DNA from: an uncultured Acholeplasmatales bacterium
Lineage (GTDB): Bacteria > Bacillota_I > Bacilli_A > Acholeplasmatales > Anaeroplasmataceae
DNA length: 51,192 nt
Assembly: GCA_944324795.1 (NCBI GenBank)
Contig: CALUXR010000012.1
Span: 1-51,192 of the forward strand
Direction of reading: 5' to 3'
Shown: in pieces, positions 94 to 24,898 of the stretch
Layout: each line of letters begins with the position of its first letter
Position numbering within the stretch: the stretch's first letter is position 1
The notes under the pieces: generated by a model
Seen by the model: the letters and a program-made list of their open reading frames with translations, nothing else
Told to the model about the DNA's origin: nothing
The model's database searches: none
Program-made: the position numbers and the translations under genes

Positions 94-795
94 TTAATTA
101 TCTATTTTCTTAGTAAAGCTACATTTAGGATAATTAGAACAACCTATAAACTTTCCATATTTTCCGTCTCTTAAAAGTAATGTACCTCCACAACGAGGAC
201 ATATTCCTTTTTTTAAATTTTTTTGGGTTTCTTTTATATTTTTAATATGTTCTTTATTAGATATATTCATTTTATTTTCTAATAAAGTATTATAAATATT
301 ATTTATTTCATCATCTGTTAAATAAGTATTATCATTAAAACATTTTAAATATTTTTTTAATTTTTTTAAATTAATAACATAATTAATATTAAGATTTTTA
401 GCATTATTATTAGTTAATACAATAACAGAATTTATATTATATTTATAATGTAATAATTGATTTAATAAATAAATATGTGATTTATTTTGTTTAATAGGGT
501 TTTTAATTTGATATTTCTTATTATAAAATATTTCAGTCCAATTATCACTAAATTCATTGCCAACTAAAAGACCTTTATAACTTTTAGTTTCTATACAAAA
601 TATACCATTATTTCTAATTTCTATATGATCGATTTGATGAGTATGACCAAAATCATCCATTAATGTTAAATTATTAATTAATTTATGATTGACTTTAAAT
701 ATTAAAGGATTTAATTTTCTTTTTACCTTAAATTCACCAATTTCTCCTTGTAAATTATTTAATGGCTTTTTAAATATTTTCCTTAATAGTCCCAT
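94..795 (-). CDS. NERD-domain protein with C-terminal topoisomerase-type zinc finger
   Basis: 233 residues. The first two thirds match the NERD (nuclease-related) domain, a PD-(D/E)XK-like fold: a GEIGEFKVKRKL start, then QIDHIEI and an IETKSYKG segment supplying the D...E-x-K pattern. The last 35 residues form a C4 zinc ribbon of the topoisomerase I type (CPRCGG...GKFIGCSNYPKC). NERD plus C4 finger is a known combination, thought to act in DNA processing, but its substrate is unknown. The protein is predicted cytoplasmic, with no signal peptide. It is the second gene of an operon: the SIMPL gene ends 5 nt upstream and a strong terminator follows. The family call is solid; the function is inferred. 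Confidence 0.85.
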   Translation of the reverse strand: MGLLRKIFKKPLNNLQGEIGEFKVKRKLNPLIFKVNHKLINNLTLMDDFGHTHQIDHIEIRNNGIFCIETKSYKGLLVGNEFSDNWTEIFYNKKYQIKNPIKQNKSHIYLLNQLLHYKYNINSVIVLTNNNAKNLNINYVINLKKLKKYLKCFNDNTYLTDDEINNIYNTLLENKMNISNKEHIKNIKETQKNLKKGICPRCGGTLLLRDGKYGKFIGCSNYPKCSFTKKIDN

Positions 796-1738: not shown

Positions 1739-2102
1739 TTAATATATTGCTAATTAAATAATAAAAACTAGCATATGCTATATAAATTATTAATTAATTT
1801 AAAAATCCAAATTTGCAAACGAGAGATAATTGAGGCATAATTTTAACCAGATTTATTGAAAGGAAAAACTATAAAAGCTTTTGTGAACTGGTTAATTTAT
1901 AGTAACTTGGCGGTTGTTTGATGAGCCAGTTCACAAAAGCTTCAAACAACTGCCAACAATGAAAAAGAAACTTAATATTTTGGAACATCTTTAAGAAGAT
2001 TTCCTTGGACAAATACCACTTCTACTGAACTTCAAACTATGATTTCATCCACAGTTCTTGAATGGTATGAGCTAAACACAGAAAAACTAGTGTCAAAAAA
2101 TT
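1739..2102. other. Non-coding scar between two gene remnants
   Basis: No frame of either strand holds a convincing gene. The plus strand shows short open stretches broken by stops, for example a run reading FGTSLRRFPWTNTTSTELQ near 1979-2035 that ends at about 2102. These could be remains of another gene, but I cannot name the family. The striking element is the pair of interleaved inverted repeats at 1875-1954, listed separately. Confidence 0.5.
1875..1954. repeat. Interleaved inverted repeats (pseudoknot-like)
   Basis: Arm A (1875-1891, AAGCTTTTGTGAACTGG) is perfectly complementary to arm A' (1926-1942). Arm B (1909-1921, GGCGGTTGTTTGA) is complementary to arm B' (1942-1954) with one position that would be a G-U pair in RNA. 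The order A-B-A'-B' means the two stems cross, as in an H-type pseudoknot. The function is unknown. It may be a mobile-element end, a recombination site or a structured RNA. Confidence 0.75.
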
Positions 2103-2458
2103 AAAGTTTATTGATTTTATAAAGCCTCTACGATGTCATATGAATTAGATAGTCATTTAGAAAAAACAAAGTTGGAGATAATGGTCTATTATTTTTAAAA
2201 TATATTTATGATAATAAAAAATATTATCAATTATTATATAAAAATGATTTAATTTCTTCTATTATGAATATCTTTGAATATTTAGCTAATAAAAACAAAT
2301 TTGATCCAAAAGCTTCTTATTTAATGGCATTCTTCACTTATGGTTATTTTGGTATTATCTACACTTGGAATAAAAATGATTTTAAAGAAACACCAGAAAA
2401 AATCCTACAATATACAGTTGAAGTTTTATTAGAGGCTCAAAAGAAAGAGAAAAAATAA
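2103..2458 (+). pseudogene. 3' remnant of a TetR/AcrR-family regulator
   Basis: The frame ending at 2458 is open from about 2153 and reads KNKVGDNGLLFLKYIYDNKKYYQLL, then FFTYGYFGIIYTWNKNDFKETPEKI. The YGYFGIIYTWNKNDFKETPE stretch is characteristic of TetR C-terminal ligand-binding domains. The likely continuation upstream (YELDSHLEKTK at 2133-2165) lies in another frame, so there is also a frameshift. The helix-turn-helix N-terminus is missing. The 64-residue ORF beginning at 2264 is only the end of this remnant. Confidence 0.65.
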
Positions 2459-2494: not shown

Positions 2495-2529
2495 ATTATC
2501 ACATTAGAAAGCTTATAAAAATGATACAT

Positions 2530-2590
2530 CTAATAAACTTGGTCAATTTATTAGATTATAAAGAGAGGAGAAAGCTTATAGACCATAAGC
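2530..2590 (+). promoter_or_regulatory. Leader hairpins ahead of the secreted-protein gene
   Basis: There are two stems in the 5' leader: CTAATAAA/TTTATTAG (2530-2537 with 2547-2554) and AGCTTAT/ATAAGCT around 2573-2590. A GAGAGGAG Shine-Dalgarno-like stretch lies between them, too far from the ATG at 2602 unless the second hairpin folds. Regulatory use is speculative. Confidence 0.35.
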
Positions 2591-2601
2591 TAATAAAAGA
2601 A

Positions 2602-3072
2602 ATGAAAATATTAAAGAAATGTTTGTTAGTTTTTATGTTTTTATGTGTTTCAATTACCTTATTTTCATTTGCTAATGAGGAAATTAATAATGCTTATGCT
2701 AATGAAAATGAATTAGTAATTGATGATGGGACAGTTAAAGTTTTTTCTTATGATAATGCTATGTTTTATAATTTAATTGATGAAGATAATAATTATGGTT
2801 ATAGAATTATATTTGATGGTTATTTAGAAACATTTATTGAAATGACACTAGAAACCAAGCTTTTAAGAGGAATATTAGATGATAAATCTTTTAGTGTTCA
2901 ATTAGAAACAGTTACTTTAGAATTATTAATAAATAAATGTGAAGAAAATAAGATAGCTGATGATAATCCTTTATGGTGGAACTTATATGAAATAAGAGAT
3001 GATTTCTATAAAAAAACTATAGGCCTAGTATCATACCTACAAGCTCTAACTATGTTTCTGATTATGAATTAG
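2602..3072 (+). CDS. N-terminal part of a frameshifted secreted protein
   Basis: The start at 2602 is preferred over the in-frame ATG at 2521 because it gives a clean signal peptide (MKILKKCLLVFMFLCVSITLFSFA, cleavage near ANE/AYA). The mature part is acidic, with no family I recognise. The coding sense breaks at the A7 tract at 3010-3016: after FYKK this frame gives an unlike tail and stops at 3072. The frame of the next ORF reads KNYRPSIIPTSSNYVSDYELERM straight on from that tract, so one extra A would restore a single protein of about 740 residues with 3078-4778. It may be a real decay, phase variation, or an assembly/sequencing error. Confidence 0.7.
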   Translation: MKILKKCLLVFMFLCVSITLFSFANEEINNAYANENELVIDDGTVKVFSYDNAMFYNLIDEDNNYGYRIIFDGYLETFIEMTLETKLLRGILDDKSFSVQLETVTLELLINKCEENKIADDNPLWWNLYEIRDDFYKKTIGLVSYLQALTMFLIMN

Positions 3073-3077
3073 AAAGA

Positions 3078-4778
3078 ATGACATCTACAGATTATTATTT
3101 AGATAATTATGAATTACAAAGATATGGTGGTAAAACTGCTAAAAAATATGAAGAAGGTATAGTAAATATTATTCCTAAAGCTTGGTTCTTTGATGTTGGC
3201 GAACACATTTATTACGGAACAGAATACATAATATATGCTGATACAATTGTTATTAATGAAGATACAATGTGGAAAAATACTTATTGGAAAACAGAGGTAT
3301 ATGTTTTTGATATTGATAGAACTAAAATAGGATCATCTCAAGTAGCAAATGACAATCCAGCTGATGATACAATAAGAGTTAATGATGGTTATAATATAAT
3401 TATTGATGTGGCAATAAGAAATGTTTATTACGGGCTAGATTATGATAAATCAACATTGTTTTATAATAGTGATAATTTAGATAAAACAAAAGAACAAATT
3501 GTCGTAAATGGTTATGCAATAGATAAAATAGACATCTATCCTGATAGACCTAGTCCTATATTTTTAAATATACAAAACTTATATGCCTCTATTGATACAC
3601 CAAATATAGACAGCGATGATGTTTATATACATGACTTGTACTATAAACTAAATAATAAAATTAATGACTACTCAGATAAAGGAAATTCTGAATCCACAGG
3701 AATTGATTACGTAGGGTATGTTAGTGAAGAGGTCGCCTTAACAGCTTTAGGTGCTGTTTTAGGAAAATATGGGATAATTTTAGATATTCTTAATATAGTT
3801 GGCGAAGGATTTAAATATATTATCCCAAAGGATGAAGAGAAACCTACTTTTGTTTCTTACGAAACTACAAAGGTAATAAGTCAGGGAACAAAGTTTAATA
3901 AAACGGCTTTAATGAGTTTGCCATATAATATAGATTCTTTAATAGATAATCAAATATATGATTATTCATATAGACTCGGTATTAAAGTTAATGACAATTT
4001 CCCAAATAATCCTTTAATGTTGAATCAAAAAATATTATTTACTTCTGCTTTTCATGTTCAATTATATGATGTAAATAGGAATTTGCTAAACAACGGCGAA
4101 CATAATTATAAGTTTAATGATAATTCTTATATATTAGATACCAATACTCACGAAAACATAAAAACATTACCATATAATGCCAATATATTAGCTAATGATT
4201 ATTTAGACAGTGCAATGTTTAGAGCTCATACATCTGGTATAAATATTATTAGGACTGCCTCAAATACTTTTGTTATGATAGCTGATATTTATGGAAGGGT
4301 AATTGCTAATTCTAAAAATCCTTATGGTAATTCAGAATATGTAATAGCTAATTTAGAAGAAGGAAATTTATATTACGCTATAACTGGTTATAATAATCAA
4401 AATAAGACCGGAAGCTATAGTTTAAGTTATTATAATACCCCTTCTACTGTATCGCCTAACTCTAGTATGACTATTACAAATTACAATGATACAATGTCAC
4501 GGATTTATAAATACACACCAGGAAGTATTCCTTGTAAACTTAACGTATTTACTAATTCATATCAAGATACAAATATTGCTATATATAATTCTAAAGGCCA
4601 ATTTATAGCTGGTAATGATGATGCATATTATGATCCTGATGAGGATAATTCAGACTACAATGCTGGATGCAAAATAGGATTAATGACATCTGAAACTTAC
4701 TACATAATTATTAATAGTATAACAAGAAGTACCTTAAATTATAAAATAGAAATAGTGGTGAATGAATCGTATGATTAA
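3078..4778 (+). CDS. C-terminal part of the frameshifted secreted protein, with PPC-like domains
   Basis: 566 residues from the listed ATG, but the frame is open from 3012 and sense continues upstream, so this ATG is probably not a true start. The sequence is Tyr/Asn/Asp-rich and typical of an extracellular protein. Two C-terminal regions resemble bacterial pre-peptidase C-terminal (PPC) beta-sandwich domains: FVMIADIYGRVIANSKNPYG...YYAITGYN and CKLNVFTNSYQDTNIAIYN...GNDDAYYDPDEDNSDYNAGC...YYIIIN. The latter has an acidic loop that could bind calcium. Without upstream restoration it has no signal peptide. It overlaps the following lipoprotein gene by a few bases, so the two are co-transcribed. 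The overall family is unrecognised. Confidence 0.7.
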   Translation: MTSTDYYLDNYELQRYGGKTAKKYEEGIVNIIPKAWFFDVGEHIYYGTEYIIYADTIVINEDTMWKNTYWKTEVYVFDIDRTKIGSSQVANDNPADDTIRVNDGYNIIIDVAIRNVYYGLDYDKSTLFYNSDNLDKTKEQIVVNGYAIDKIDIYPDRPSPIFLNIQNLYASIDTPNIDSDDVYIHDLYYKLNNKINDYSDKGNSESTGIDYVGYVSEEVALTALGAVLGKYGIILDILNIVGEGFKYIIPKDEEKPTFVSYETTKVISQGTKFNKTALMSLPYNIDSLIDNQIYDYSYRLGIKVNDNFPNNPLMLNQKILFTSAFHVQLYDVNRNLLNNGEHNYKFNDNSYILDTNTHENIKTLPYNANILANDYLDSAMFRAHTSGINIIRTASNTFVMIADIYGRVIANSKNPYGNSEYVIANLEEGNLYYAITGYNNQNKTGSYSLSYYNTPSTVSPNSSMTITNYNDTMSRIYKYTPGSIPCKLNVFTNSYQDTNIAIYNSKGQFIAGNDDAYYDPDEDNSDYNAGCKIGLMTSETYYIIINSITRSTLNYKIEIVVNESYD

Positions 4779-13842: not shown

Positions 13843-15423
13843 TTATTTTAATAATCCTTTAATTTTTTCTTTTAAATATTTAAAACATTTTGTATCTTCT
13901 AAATCTTTATCAACATTAAATCCCATTATCTTACCAGCAATCCCACTACTAATTTTTCTTTCCTCTTTATCTGGATTTATAATAATAACCTCATCTACTG
14001 CGCTACGACTTATTTTATCATCTTCTTTATATACAAGCATAGCATAATTATCGATAATATTAGAAATATCATCATTAACCATTAAATAATTAATATTACG
14101 ATATTTCATTTCTAAGATTAAAGATGTTAGAAATTTATCATTTTTATAAAAAACAATCGTATAATCTGGTTTATTCCTAGTTGAAAAAACTGTAGCTAAA
14201 CTATTATTAGTTTCTATATAATGTTTAATAAAATTCTCATATGTAACAACTATTTTATATTCATTTTTAACATAATATAATTCTAAGCCTTCTAAACTAT
14301 AACTTTTTTTAACTTCATCATTATTAATAAAGTTAAAACCAAGATTTATAAATAATTTATTGATAATAACAAAACCATACAATTCAAATAAAATAGAACT
14401 TAGCTTTAAACCTAAATCTATTTCATTAGTTTTATTTAATCTATTATATAAATTCATTAAATCTAATTCATTAAAATTATTATAATCATTAAAATATTTA
14501 ATTATTTCTTTTAATTTATTTAAATCATTTTTTCTATTATTTAATTTAATAGTTTGATTTTCAATATTATTATTAATATTCTTTAAAGCATTTTGATGAT
14601 TTATAGAAACAAAATCATTATTATTATTTTTAATGTTTAAAAGTTCTAAATTCAATGATTCTAAATAGCTTTCATCTATATTAATATATTCATTAATTAT
14701 ATCTAAATAATGGTTTAATATAGCCATTATTTTATCTTTATATAATGTTGTATTGGATTTAGTTAAAAATAGTCCTTTAGAAACATTTAAATATTTAGTT
14801 GAAGGCTTTAATAAACTTTTTTTAATACTTTTAAAATTACTCTTTAGAGGATAATTTTGATATTTATAAATAGTTTTAAGTACTTCTTTATTTTCTTTTT
14901 CTCTTAAATTTATTTTTAATAAATCCCAATTAGCTAATAAATATTTTAAGTTAAAATCATCATTTATTACTACCTTTACTTTGCCTTTTCTAGCATTTGA
15001 ATAAGTAATACCTTTTTTAAAATCTTCTAATTCTTTTTTTATTTTATCTAAAGCTAAAATACTAACATGATCATTAGTTTTAACTTCAAAATAACTAGTA
15101 ATTTCTCTTTGTTTAGAAACGATATTAATAAAATAAATACCCGGATTATATCCTAAACCTTTAATTTTAAAATCATTAATAATATAACAAGTTTTATTAT
15201 TTAAACTAAGTTTATTATCTTTAACATCTTTAGCCTTATCTTTTGTTTTAACACTAAAACATTCAATTATTACTTTATAATTCTTACTTTCTACTAATAA
15301 CCCTAATTCTTCATGTTCATTAAAATTAAATAATATTTCTCCTTCTAAATTAGTATTTAATTCAATTTCTTTTTCTCTTCCTTGAGTTAAATATTTAACT
15401 ATTAATTTATCTTGTATATCCAT
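13843..15423 (-). CDS. McrC-like PD-(D/E)XK nuclease (DUF2357-type)
   Basis: 526 residues. The N-terminal half is beta-rich, the middle strongly helical, and the C-terminal part carries a PD-(D/E)XK nuclease core: NKPDYTIVFY (about 416) and LILEMKYRN (about 436), giving D...E-x-K, then YAMLVY. This is the layout of DUF2357/McrC-like proteins that act with McrB-type AAA+ motors. It overlaps the ATPase gene by 17 nt, so the pair is co-translated. By analogy with McrBC it would cut modified or foreign DNA when driven by its partner. Restriction activity is inferred; the family call is good. Confidence 0.8.
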   Translation of the reverse strand: MDIQDKLIVKYLTQGREKEIELNTNLEGEILFNFNEHEELGLLVESKNYKVIIECFSVKTKDKAKDVKDNKLSLNNKTCYIINDFKIKGLGYNPGIYFINIVSKQREITSYFEVKTNDHVSILALDKIKKELEDFKKGITYSNARKGKVKVVINDDFNLKYLLANWDLLKINLREKENKEVLKTIYKYQNYPLKSNFKSIKKSLLKPSTKYLNVSKGLFLTKSNTTLYKDKIMAILNHYLDIINEYINIDESYLESLNLELLNIKNNNNDFVSINHQNALKNINNNIENQTIKLNNRKNDLNKLKEIIKYFNDYNNFNELDLMNLYNRLNKTNEIDLGLKLSSILFELYGFVIINKLFINLGFNFINNDEVKKSYSLEGLELYYVKNEYKIVVTYENFIKHYIETNNSLATVFSTRNKPDYTIVFYKNDKFLTSLILEMKYRNINYLMVNDDISNIIDNYAMLVYKEDDKISRSAVDEVIIINPDKEERKISSGIAGKIMGFNVDKDLEDTKCFKYLKEKIKGLLK

Positions 15424-17107
15424 ATTTATCTAACTCACTTTGTTTAATTCTAAGTAAGGCTAAACTATTACTAAAGTTAGATAAATTTAGATAATTATTC
15501 AAGACTTCTTTAACTTTACTTATAATATCTTTTAAATAAAGACTAGGTCCACATATTTTACTAAATACGACTTCTTCTAAAGCTTTATCAAAAATAAATT
15601 CTCGATCAAAATTATTACCTAATAATAAAAATAAACAAATATTACTTAAATTACGATAAGATATTCTAAATGGCATTGATTCATTATTAAATAATGCATT
15701 TAAGCTATCTAATAATTTTAATTCATTAGTATCTAATTCATACATTGGATTTTCAAGTGGTAATGATTTCATATAATCTTCTAATTTATAATTGTAATGG
15801 CGAACAACATTACGATAAATTAATTGTTCATTACGATAACTTGTAAAGTCACTTTCATTCAAATTTAATAAATAAATTCTATCAAGTAATCTCTCTGATA
15901 ATTCTTTAGTTGTTTCATCTTTATTAATAGTTCCTACTATCAACAAATTATCATATAATGGAATCTTATAAGGATATTCATTTAAACATGTAGCATCTTT
16001 TGCATATAATGTTATATATTTTTCATTTCTTTCTAAATTAGCTAAAAATGGGGCAAAATAATATTCAATTTGGGCTAAATTCATTTCATCAAAGACTAAC
16101 ATATGCATTTTATTAGGATTGTTTGCTGCATGAATTAAAAAATTAGCAAGATTAGTTTCTGTTGGCATAAATTTATTTGTTGCCGGATTTAAAAAACCTA
16201 GAATATCACTTGGTTCTGTATAAGATGGAGAAATTGGCACTACAAGAAGTGTATCATTTTCTTCATTTAACCCAAAGAAATTAGCATATGATATAGCTAA
16301 TTTTGATTTACCAATACCAGGTTTTCCTTCAATTATTGTTATTTTTCTAGTACTTATAGAAACATGAAAACTATATAAATCATTTAAAATATAATATAAT
16401 CCTTTTTCAGCTAAATATTGTTTTAAATCTTTTAAAGCATCAACAATATTACCATTACCATCAATAAGTGGTACATATTTATTTTCATTAATTTCCTCTT
16501 TTAATTTTTTATTTTCTTTCAATAAATCATCATATTTTTCTAATGTATCAGTCAAATCTTTATTTAGCTCAACTAATTCATCATTTTTAATATCTAACTT
16601 ATCTTCATATTCAGCAATTATTTCTTCTTTTTCAACATTTAATTCATTTATTTTTTTATCTTTTTCATTAGTGATTTTTTCTATTTTTTCTTCATATTCT
16701 TCAATTAACTTATCAATTCTATTTTCTAAATCTAAATTGTTATTATCATTTATACCATAAAGTTTAGTTAATAATAAATAGATTTTAACTTCGCTAACTT
16801 TTTTTAAATTTTCTTCATTAATTTCTTTTAACGGCGCGCCATCATTATATTTAGATATAATATATTTAATAAATATTTTAGCTAAAGCATCATCTTTACT
16901 ATCATACATCTTATTACAGAGTTGTTGTAGTTTAGTTTTTGGTAAGCTTGCTCCTTTCCTAAATCCTTTCCATAAATCTTCAAATGGTTTTTTTCCTTTT
17001 TCTTTTTCATTAATAAATAATAATATTTGACTTATTTCATCATTTTTTAAACTAAAAAATATTTGTTCAAATTCTTCTTTAGTAATATTATTTAAATTTA
17101 ATTCCAT
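15407..17107 (-). CDS. McrB-like AAA+ ATPase/GTPase
   Basis: 566 residues. Residues 1-115 form a helical N-terminal domain I cannot assign; 120-210 is a Glu/Lys-rich coiled coil; the rest is an AAA+ motor with Walker A GKPGIGKS (about 260), Walker B LVFDEMN (about 337), and VGTINKDETTKELSERLLDR (about 394). The last segment aligns with the MNTAD-type region of McrB and carries the sensor and arginine-finger residues. It has no recognised modified-base-binding domain, so target choice may rest on the novel N-terminus. AGGAGG precedes the start and an extended -10 promoter is at 17139-17147. It forms a two-gene module with the nuclease at 13843-15423. Confidence 0.83.
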   Translation of the reverse strand: MELNLNNITKEEFEQIFFSLKNDEISQILLFINEKEKGKKPFEDLWKGFRKGASLPKTKLQQLCNKMYDSKDDALAKIFIKYIISKYNDGAPLKEINEENLKKVSEVKIYLLLTKLYGINDNNNLDLENRIDKLIEEYEEKIEKITNEKDKKINELNVEKEEIIAEYEDKLDIKNDELVELNKDLTDTLEKYDDLLKENKKLKEEINENKYVPLIDGNGNIVDALKDLKQYLAEKGLYYILNDLYSFHVSISTRKITIIEGKPGIGKSKLAISYANFFGLNEENDTLLVVPISPSYTEPSDILGFLNPATNKFMPTETNLANFLIHAANNPNKMHMLVFDEMNLAQIEYYFAPFLANLERNEKYITLYAKDATCLNEYPYKIPLYDNLLIVGTINKDETTKELSERLLDRIYLLNLNESDFTSYRNEQLIYRNVVRHYNYKLEDYMKSLPLENPMYELDTNELKLLDSLNALFNNESMPFRISYRNLSNICLFLLLGNNFDREFIFDKALEEVVFSKICGPSLYLKDIISKVKEVLNNYLNLSNFSNSLALLRIKQSELDKYGYTR

Positions 17108-22830: not shown

Positions 22831-24898
22831 TCTTCCTCCTATATTCGATAAGGTGCTCTAATTCATCATTTATAATGATGTTTCTAGGTCCTATATAACC
22901 ATCAATTTCTATTTTTAAGCCTATAAGTTGACGTATTCCTGTAGAAACATTAACTATAACTTTGTCATCTAAATATTTAAATATTAATGCACATCTACCA
23001 TTTACTCTAATGTTTTTATATTCAATTTCTCTATTTGTGAAATTATTTAAGAAGATATAATTATTATATTCTAATGCATGATAATTATTTTCCATTACTA
23101 ATAAATATTTATCATCACATTTTTTATAATTTGGATATATTTGATAACTATAATTTTTAACATTTTCTAATATAAGTCTAATACCCTTTATTTCTTCTTC
23201 ATTTTTATTTTCTTTTATATTTAATTCACTATATGATCTCTTTTCATTATAATTTATTAATTTTGCCTTCTCTACGCCTTTTATTACTAATTTACCACTT
23301 TTAGCAATATCGTTAAATTTAATAATATTATAATCATCATAAATAGTGTGATGTAAGTTTTCACCTTTAATATTTGAACCAACCATAACAAATGAATTTG
23401 GTAATACAAATCTTGAGAAATTGCCTTTATAACTAGCATTACTTTTAAAATAGACATTTAACAAATTATCTAAGACTACACCTATACTATAATTCTTTTT
23501 ATAAATTTTATTTGGCTCTTCAACATCTAAGTTATTAGTTGAACCATTTCTATAAAATGGATTTATTCTTATAACATCTTTTTTATTTTCATTGTTATAA
23601 TAAATATCAAAAGTTCCATTTGCTTCATAATATCCTAATAAATTTTCACCATTTATAGCTTCATAATTAGCAATATAAGCTGAATTATTGTTAAAAGATA
23701 TCAAATAATCATTGTTACGATAAATATATCTATCCATATAATTAAAAGCCTTAACTAATAAATTATATTCATTGTTTTCTAAGTCAATTAATAATTTATT
23801 TAAATAATTATCATTACTTATTTCTTTTAAAGTCTTGATAGATTTAACAATTATTTTATAACTATAATTACTATTTAAAATTTTCCTTGATACTGCTCTA
23901 CCTCTAACTGATTCTATAGCATATTTATTATATAAAAATGGTTCATAACTAGTTTTAATCAAATTTATAATAATATTTAAATAATTAGTTATATCATAAT
24001 TACATACTTTAAAGATTTTTAATAATTTAGCTAAAGAATTTAATAACACTTCACCATATGAGGCATTATAAGGTATATTTTTATGTTGAATAAATGAGCC
24101 ATCAAGATAAAAACCATCATCTTTTTTTGTATAAATTATTGTTCTTTTAATTAAATTGAATAAATAATTTAAAGTTTTAGTATCTTCTATCATTATTCCT
24201 TTTAATAAAGCAATATAAATATTATCGGCTAGATTAGCATATGTCGCTATTTCATATTTTTGATTTGGCCAATTACGTCTATAAAAGATATATAAGGCAT
24301 TAGGAGCATAAAAATTTATAATATTTAAATACTTAAATATCTCTTCTTTTTCTAAATCATTATATAACAATAATAATGTTTCAGTTAAAACTCTAGGAAT
24401 ACCTATTTCATAAGGCCACCAATTACCACTATAATTAGTTTTACCTGTATAATAATTATTTATAACAAAACTAAGAGCGTATTTAATATTTTGTAATAAA
24501 TCATTATCTTTATTATCTTTATAATGTAGGGCCATATTAAATATTCTTTTTAAACAAGTATAAGTATTATCTCCTGTATTTTCTAATATATCTAAATATA
24601 GCTTATTTTGATTTTTAATAATCGGAATAATTTCTTGTTTTTTAATATTTAATCTATAATTTTCATAAAATGATAAATATTTATTTTTATATAAAGCTAT
24701 TTTAATTTTAATATTAGGATTATCTTCAATAAATAAATTAGAAAATGAACCTAGATAGATAGCATAAGTTGCTTTATTAGATAAATAAACATAATCTTCT
24801 TTACCATCAATAATATATTTAATTTTAAATAAATCTTGATCACTATTTAACCTAATAAAACAGATAAAATTGCCTTTTTTCTTATTTTTTACATCCAT
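22817..24898 (-). CDS. Polysaccharide lyase family 8 (hyaluronate/chondroitin lyase-like), no signal peptide
   Basis: 693 residues. PL8 signatures are plain. GNWWPYEIGIPRVLTETLLLL carries the catalytic-type Asn (about 159). DGFYLDGSFIQHKNIPYNASYG carries the His (about 269) and the Tyr nine residues on, the same spacing as His399/Tyr408 of the pneumococcal enzyme. RGRAVSRKIL (about 331) gives the active-site Arg. A beta-rich C-terminal half follows. PL8 enzymes are normally exported, but the N-terminus here (MDVKNKKKGNFICFIRL) is not a signal peptide and no anchor is seen, so it may act in the cytoplasm on imported oligosaccharides. The start is supported by GGAG upstream. Confidence 0.9.
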   Translation of the reverse strand: MDVKNKKKGNFICFIRLNSDQDLFKIKYIIDGKEDYVYLSNKATYAIYLGSFSNLFIEDNPNIKIKIALYKNKYLSFYENYRLNIKKQEIIPIIKNQNKLYLDILENTGDNTYTCLKRIFNMALHYKDNKDNDLLQNIKYALSFVINNYYTGKTNYSGNWWPYEIGIPRVLTETLLLLYNDLEKEEIFKYLNIINFYAPNALYIFYRRNWPNQKYEIATYANLADNIYIALLKGIMIEDTKTLNYLFNLIKRTIIYTKKDDGFYLDGSFIQHKNIPYNASYGEVLLNSLAKLLKIFKVCNYDITNYLNIIINLIKTSYEPFLYNKYAIESVRGRAVSRKILNSNYSYKIIVKSIKTLKEISNDNYLNKLLIDLENNEYNLLVKAFNYMDRYIYRNNDYLISFNNNSAYIANYEAINGENLLGYYEANGTFDIYYNNENKKDVIRINPFYRNGSTNNLDVEEPNKIYKKNYSIGVVLDNLLNVYFKSNASYKGNFSRFVLPNSFVMVGSNIKGENLHHTIYDDYNIIKFNDIAKSGKLVIKGVEKAKLINYNEKRSYSELNIKENKNEEEIKGIRLILENVKNYSYQIYPNYKKCDDKYLLVMENNYHALEYNNYIFLNNFTNREIEYKNIRVNGRCALIFKYLDDKVIVNVSTGIRQLIGLKIEIDGYIGPRNIIINDELEHLIEYRRKNEEV

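What the first reader, a model, noticed from the sequence alone, without database searches (positions are those of the whole stretch)
1875..1954. Two long inverted repeats interleaved in pseudoknot order inside a gene scar
A 17-bp perfect repeat (1875-1891 with 1926-1942) and a 13-bp near-perfect repeat (1909-1921 with 1942-1954) cross each other in the order A-B-A'-B', and the last base of A' is the first of B'. Such a compact double crossing is very unlikely by chance in AT-rich DNA, and both stems contain GC-richer segments than their surroundings. No gene explains it. It could be a structured RNA, a recombinase or plasmid-origin site, or the end of a lost mobile element whose insertion made the scar.
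Basis: seen in the sequence. Interest (0 to 1): 0.62.

Follow-up and report, generated by a model that had tools for sequence, protein, structure and literature searches.

The report
Interleaved leader RNA of IS1595 transposons
The odd double inverted repeat is a decayed copy of a structured RNA at the start of a jumping gene's message; the same interleaved design recurs, with quite different letters, in many related jumping genes, and probably keeps their transposase scarce.

Summary
The 80 nt are not a pseudoknot of unknown origin. They are the 5' leader of a decayed IS1595-family insertion sequence (about 1801-2140) that cut into a TetR-type gene. Intact relatives, such as one in Anaeroplasma bactoclasticum, keep the leader between an internal promoter and the transposase ATG, with compensatory changes in two helices. 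The same A-B-A'-B' layout, with unrelated sequence, precedes some 30 IS1595-family transposases (Bacilli and one Spirochaetota), follows the transposase tree, and is absent from one large subclade. Non-Watson-Crick pairs are G.T 47 to A.C 6 (p = 6e-9), so the sense-strand RNA is what is selected. The crossing helices mostly cannot coexist, so I read the leader as an attenuator-like switch. In one clade the last helix covers the Shine-Dalgarno sequence or abuts the ATG; in the other the long helix ends in a U-tract like a terminator. No Rfam family matched and no described precedent was found in the papers held. The identity is well supported; the regulatory function is inferred.

The parts
1801..1831 (+). 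left terminal inverted repeat / left end of the IS remnant (AAAAATCCAAATTTGCAAACGAGAGATAATT)
   Evidence: 84% identical to the G030 copy over 1801-1831; corresponds to ATTCCTAATTTGCACAG at the left end of the A. bactoclasticum element, repeated inverted at its right end
1813..1841 (+). predicted internal promoter: -35 TTGCAA (1813-1818), 17 nt, -10 CATAAT (1836-1841)
   Evidence: read from sequence; relatives have TATAAT at the same place
1858..1864 (+). GAAAGGA, SD-like element upstream of the helices, kept in the closest relatives
   Evidence: alignment A2; L085/L086 similar
1868..1875 (+). helix C, 5' arm (ACTATAAA)
   Evidence: 4 of 8 pairs with compensatory change among 3 copies
1896..1903 (+). 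helix C, 3' arm (TTTATAGT)
1921..1942 (+). helix A, 3' arm
1942..1956 (+). helix D, 3' arm, ending 2 nt before the transposase ATG
1959..2138 (+). decayed 5' part of an IS1595-family transposase gene (ATG at 1959; frameshifted, stops inside)
   Evidence: tblastn of the A. bactoclasticum N-terminus hits 1970-2110 at 34% identity with 2 stops, E 7.9e-4; readable as YFGTSLRRFPWTNTTSTEL and later PLRCH in other frames
2168..2458 (+). remnant of the interrupted host gene: C-terminal part of a TetR-type regulator
   Evidence: Pfam TetR_C_8, E 4e-9, on 2264-2458; open frame back to about 2168

Best explanation
The segment is the 5' leader of the transposase gene of a decayed IS1595-family insertion sequence. 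In intact relatives the leader RNA starts at the internal promoter and carries overlapping long complementary segments in the order C-A-C'-D-A'-D' (not all three pairs in every element). A:A' crosses C:C' and D:D'. Because the joining loops are often too short for both crossing helices to form fully, the RNA has mutually exclusive folds. One fold blocks expression: in one transposase clade D:D' covers the Shine-Dalgarno sequence or abuts the start codon; in the other the long A:A' helix runs into a U-tract like a terminator. The competing helix relieves the block. I propose a co-transcriptional attenuator that holds transposase synthesis low. Shown: identity, position, conservation of pairing, selection on the RNA sense strand, SD occlusion by complementarity. 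Inferred: exclusivity, the direction of the switch, and that transposase output is what it controls. The trigger, if any, is unknown. The window copy itself is dead.
For: Homologous copies: G030, 86% identical over 95 nt, and three in A. bactoclasticum, one of them complete with terminal repeats and an IS1595-family transposase (NCBIfam NF033547, 78.2 bits, cut-off 75). Compensatory changes: 4 of 8 pairs in C and 4 of 21 in A among three copies; 4 pairs with double changes and 97.7% of cells paired among five further elements. Crossing helices in 30 elements; the label needs 4 changes on the transposase tree against 15.2 when shuffled (0 of 500 as low). G.T 47 versus A.C 6 in helices defined without G.T credit. 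In 16 of 18 leaders the script found a -10-like box 5-7 nt before helix C; L140, where it anchored on the wrong strand, has TAAAAT 6 nt before helix C in the printed leader. In 8 of 8 leaders of two subgroups the segment before A' pairs with the SD. Long A:A' followed by T-rich sequence in the other clade. A:A' alone and C:C' plus D:D' are each stable on their own, -21 to -38 and -12 to -29 kcal/mol.
Against: No expression data. The leaders of the window's own subgroup lack an SD next to the ATG, so how D:D' acts there is unclear. A:A' is usually the more stable fold, so the default state is uncertain and may differ between the clades. In some leaders of the terminator-like clade (e.g. L140, L110) the joining loops are long enough that a real pseudoknot cannot be excluded. 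Few sequences per subgroup, so covariation counts are small.
Confidence: 0.65

Rival explanations
1. The leader is a separate or trans-acting RNA that the transposase or transpososome needs, for example a guide or scaffold in the manner of IS110 bridge RNA, rather than a cis-regulator.
For: Strong conservation of the architecture with nearly free sequence, tight linkage to one transposase lineage, RNA-level selection, 5' end at the promoter.
Against: Copies of one element with near-identical sequence sit at different A/T-rich 8-bp duplicated targets, as expected of a DDE transposase without a guide; the transposase is a zinc-ribbon IS1595-type protein; D' overlaps the SD or abuts the ATG, which points to cis control; a large IS1595 subclade does without it.
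Confidence: 0.1
2. The two helices form together as a very long H-type pseudoknot that acts as a roadblock or ribosome-binding element.
For: Order A-B-A'-B'; in some leaders loops of 9-26 nt could span the stems.
Against: In the window and its nearest relatives the A'-to-D' loop is 0 nt against a 17-22 bp stem; in L117 and L113 the first loop is 0-1 nt against 20-25 bp.
Confidence: 0.15
3. The repeats are DNA sites: transposase binding sites, a cruciform or a recombination site.
For: They lie near the end of a mobile element.
Against: G.T pairs outnumber A.C pairs 47 to 6, which a strand-symmetric DNA constraint does not explain; the sequence is not conserved between elements while pairing is; terminal repeats lie elsewhere.
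Confidence: 0.03
4. Chance palindromes or a hairpin-templated mutation in a dying gene.
For: The window copy is decayed.
Against: Exceeds all shuffles; homologues with compensatory changes; same layout in about 30 elements.
Confidence: 0.01

Closest known systems
IS200 tnpA 5' untranslated region (stem-loop that hides the ribosome-binding site; described in PMC12594629)
   Same: Insertion sequence whose transposase leader RNA folds so as to limit transposase translation.
   Different: IS200 has an HUH transposase (general knowledge) and a stem-loop rather than crossing helices; no relation of sequence seen.
Transcription/translation attenuators (trp-type leaders, erm-type leaders; from general knowledge)
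   Same: Mutually exclusive helices, one of which is a terminator or hides the SD.
   Different: No conserved leader peptide found; the exclusive helices are interleaved (1:3 versus 2:4) and mostly 12-25 bp long rather than 1:2/2:3/3:4.
IS110 bridge RNA (from general knowledge)
   Same: RNA encoded in the non-coding end of an IS next to its recombinase gene.
   Different: Recombinase family, target choice and RNA architecture all differ.
IS10 / IS50 protection of transposase translation from read-through transcripts (from general knowledge)
   Same: Inverted repeats near the IS end hide the transposase start.
   Different: There the element's own promoter lies inside the structure, so its own transcript escapes; here the promoter lies upstream of all helices, so every transcript carries them.

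Membership tests
IS1595-family insertion sequence | IS1595-type DDE transposase | tested here: met
   Complete relative: NF033547 78.2 bits over cut-off 75; Pfam ISXO2-like domain 24.7 bits, just under its cut-off of 27. Window: only a frameshifted N-terminal piece matches.
IS1595-family insertion sequence | terminal inverted repeats | tested here: met
   A. bactoclasticum ATTCCTAATTTGCACAG..CTGTGCAAATTAGGAAT; the window keeps the left one only.
IS1595-family insertion sequence | 8-bp target duplication | tested here: inconclusive
   Clear 8-bp duplications in relatives; the window's right end is lost, so not testable there.
Known Rfam family | match to a covariance model of Rfam 15 | tested here: not met
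   No leader match in the window at gathering thresholds, nor in seventeen relative loci with permissive E-values.
IS110 bridge-RNA system | IS110-type recombinase | tested here: not met
   Transposase is IS1595 type.
IS110 bridge-RNA system | specific, RNA-matched target site | tested here: inconclusive
   Near-identical copies sit at different A/T-rich targets, which speaks against it; complementarity of leader to targets was not scored systematically.
Attenuator | mutually exclusive helices, one carrying a terminator or an SD block | tested here: met
   By sequence only: crossing helices with short loops, SD pairing, U-tracts.
Attenuator | change of expression when the balance of folds changes | not testable with these tools
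   Needs reporter or transcription assays.
H-type pseudoknot | loops long enough for both stems to form | tested here: not met
   Window loop A' to D' is 0 nt against a stem of 17-22 bp; the steric judgement is inference. In some relatives the loops would suffice.

The most novel reading that the evidence does not exclude
The leader is an uncatalogued RNA class that works in trans as a component of IS1595 transposition (binding the transposase or shaping target or donor choice), with its interleaved duplexes as the recognised fold, rather than a cis-attenuator.
Probability: 0.08. Interest if true: 0.9.

Novelty: new variant of a known kind. Interest (0 to 1): 0.6.

Why it matters
It exposes a structured leader RNA, apparently not in Rfam, attached to a widespread family of mobile elements. 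Its geometry, two long interleaved duplexes, is kept while almost every base is replaced. It gives a testable account of how IS1595-family transposons keep their transposase scarce, with two output modes (start-site occlusion and termination) on two branches of one transposase tree. RNA finders that allow only nested structures would tend to miss such crossing helices.

Tried and rejected
1) Leader peptide: the frame at 1871-1921 looked conserved in G030, but the A. bactoclasticum leader breaks it; RNA pairing explains the conservation. 2) Leader as N-terminal coding sequence of the transposase: L090 has an in-frame stop 3 codons before the ATG. 3) SD brought to the ATG by folding (GAAAGGA at 1858): fits the window, G030 and A. 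bactoclasticum, but most group-1 relatives lack that SD-like element, so not generalised. 4) Exact motif in IMG/VR: 4 hits, all unrelated coding sequence. 5) Transposase in IMG/VR: none. 6) Plasmid and phage DNA searches: only weak matches elsewhere in the query. 7) G071 24-nt match: one arm only, taken as chance. 8) Other crossing pairs in the window (15417-15526, 24452-24550): within ORFs, near the shuffle maximum. 9) IS1595 members without the layout (ISSag10, ISCco2, ISCaje5 and others) served as internal negatives. 10) The automatic label missed L155, and probably L102 (leader read only in part), at first; both were inspected by eye. 11) Paper searches for IS1595 with pseudoknot, structured RNA or leader found nothing describing this; the founding IS1595 paper was not seen in the library and ISfinder is not available here.

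Full report
Observation. The sequence at 1875-1956 is as described, slightly larger. A pairs over 1875-1896 / 1921-1942 (20 of 22 Watson-Crick, 17 contiguous) and B over 1907-1921 / 1942-1956 (14 of 15, one G.T). A third helix, 1868-1875 / 1896-1903, encloses A. A scan of the whole window for crossing helix pairs put this first with 34.5; twelve dinucleotide shuffles of the window reached 21.5-26.0, and the next two real pairs (27.0, 26.5) lie inside ORFs.

What it belongs to. The own genome holds no second copy. A genome of the same family, G030, has a copy 86% identical over 95 nt. A wider search with that copy found two in Anaeroplasma bactoclasticum at contig ends (organism named), each followed at once by the ATG of an ORF; a third place in the same genome carries the complete ORF. 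It is an IS1595-family transposase (NF033547, E 7.7e-22) in an element of about 1.26 kb with terminal repeats ATTCCTAATTTGCACAG / CTGTGCAAATTAGGAAT. In the window the left repeat (1801-1831), a promoter (TTGCAA-17-CATAAT), the leader, the ATG (1959) and a frameshifted transposase N-terminus (to about 2138) remain, followed by the C-terminal part of a TetR-type regulator. That is the 'gene scar': an IS insertion followed by loss of the rest of the IS and of the first part of the gene (inference).

Conservation of pairing. On the alignment of window, G030 and A. bactoclasticum, helix C keeps all 24 cells paired with double changes in 4 of 8 pairs, and helix A has double changes in 4 of 21 pairs; sliding the 3' arms by 1-3 columns drops pairing to 21-49%. 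Helix D is kept but without double changes in column-wise counting; in A. bactoclasticum it re-forms with a shifted register. In four elements of the order (L095, L098, L103, L104) and one on a Tenericutes plasmid (L128), 97.7% of cells pair with 4 double changes, against 39-46% when slid.

The layout is general. Searching for transposases of this family and scoring their leaders gave 30 elements with two long crossing helices, among them a Spirochaetales one (L079), an Erysipelotrichaceae one (L081) and Acholeplasmatales ones, with largely unrelated stem sequences, mostly 10-25 bp. A motif TTGGCG or TTTGGCGA lies between A and A' in most; it pairs with a downstream arm in the window's group and with an upstream arm in the others. 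On a maximum-likelihood tree of 46 transposases the label needs 4 changes against 15.2 in shuffles (none of 500 as low), before two missed positives (L155, and L102 by partial sequence) were corrected by eye. One 17-row clade, with ISSag10 and relatives, lacks it.

It is RNA. Helices were defined with Watson-Crick pairs only and all mismatches penalised alike; inside them G.T pairs number 47 and A.C pairs 6 (binomial p = 6e-9). G.T is tolerated in the sense transcript, A.C would be tolerated in the antisense one, and a DNA constraint would treat both alike. In 16 of 18 leaders of the upstream-arm type the script found a -10-like hexamer 5-7 nt before the first base of helix C, exactly 6 in most, so the RNA is predicted to start there; in L140 and L154 the script anchored on the wrong strand, and the L140 leader as printed has TAAAAT 6 nt before GCCAAAC.

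Mechanism. In the window the A' and D' arms share a base, so a 17-22 bp A:A' helix and a 15-bp D:D' helix cannot both be complete in one molecule; loops of 0-1 nt recur in L117, L113 and others (the steric reasoning is inference). The sets {A:A'} and {C:C', D:D'} are each stable. In eight of eight leaders of two subgroups the stretch between C' and A' is complementary to the Shine-Dalgarno stretch (p 0.000-0.056 each against shuffles). In the window's subgroup D' ends within a few nt of the ATG and there is no SD there. In the other clade no such complement is evident, and the long A:A' helix runs directly into T-rich sequence such as CATTTTTT. The simplest common account is an attenuator with interleaved helices whose output is start-site occlusion in one clade and termination in the other. 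The signal is unknown; it may simply be folding kinetics that set a low, steady output.

Against a guide role. Near-identical copies in G096, G087 and G453 sit at different A/T-rich targets with 8-bp duplications, and the enzyme is of the IS1595 type. A trans role is not excluded.

Known or not. No Rfam family covers the leader. Searches of the held papers found nothing on it. RBS occlusion in an IS leader has precedent in IS200 (PMC12594629). I therefore call it a new variant of a known kind; whether specialists have noted it in ISfinder is not checked.

Noticed in passing
L078 2706-2779 (A. bactoclasticum, G021:C30): A c-di-GMP-I riboswitch (67.7 bits) lies about 130 nt downstream of the end of the IS1595-type transposase ORF.
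   Followed up: no
window 2521-4778: Two adjacent ORFs (2521-3072 and 3078-4778, same strand, 5 nt apart) may be one secreted-protein gene split by a frameshift; no Pfam match over cut-off.
   Followed up: no
L172-L179 (G096, G087): Several IS1595-type elements sit in runs of A or T, their 8-bp duplications being nearly pure A or T: an A/T-tract target preference.
   Followed up: partly
L052 99-503 (G030:C81): The G030 leader copy is followed not by a transposase but by an unrelated 134-aa membrane-like ORF; its start region is also found in G024 (94% over 31 nt). The leader may have been left behind as a solo remnant.
   Followed up: no
window 94-795: NERD nuclease-related domain fused to a topoisomerase-type zinc ribbon, next to a SIMPL (DUF541) protein at 801-1451.
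   Followed up: no
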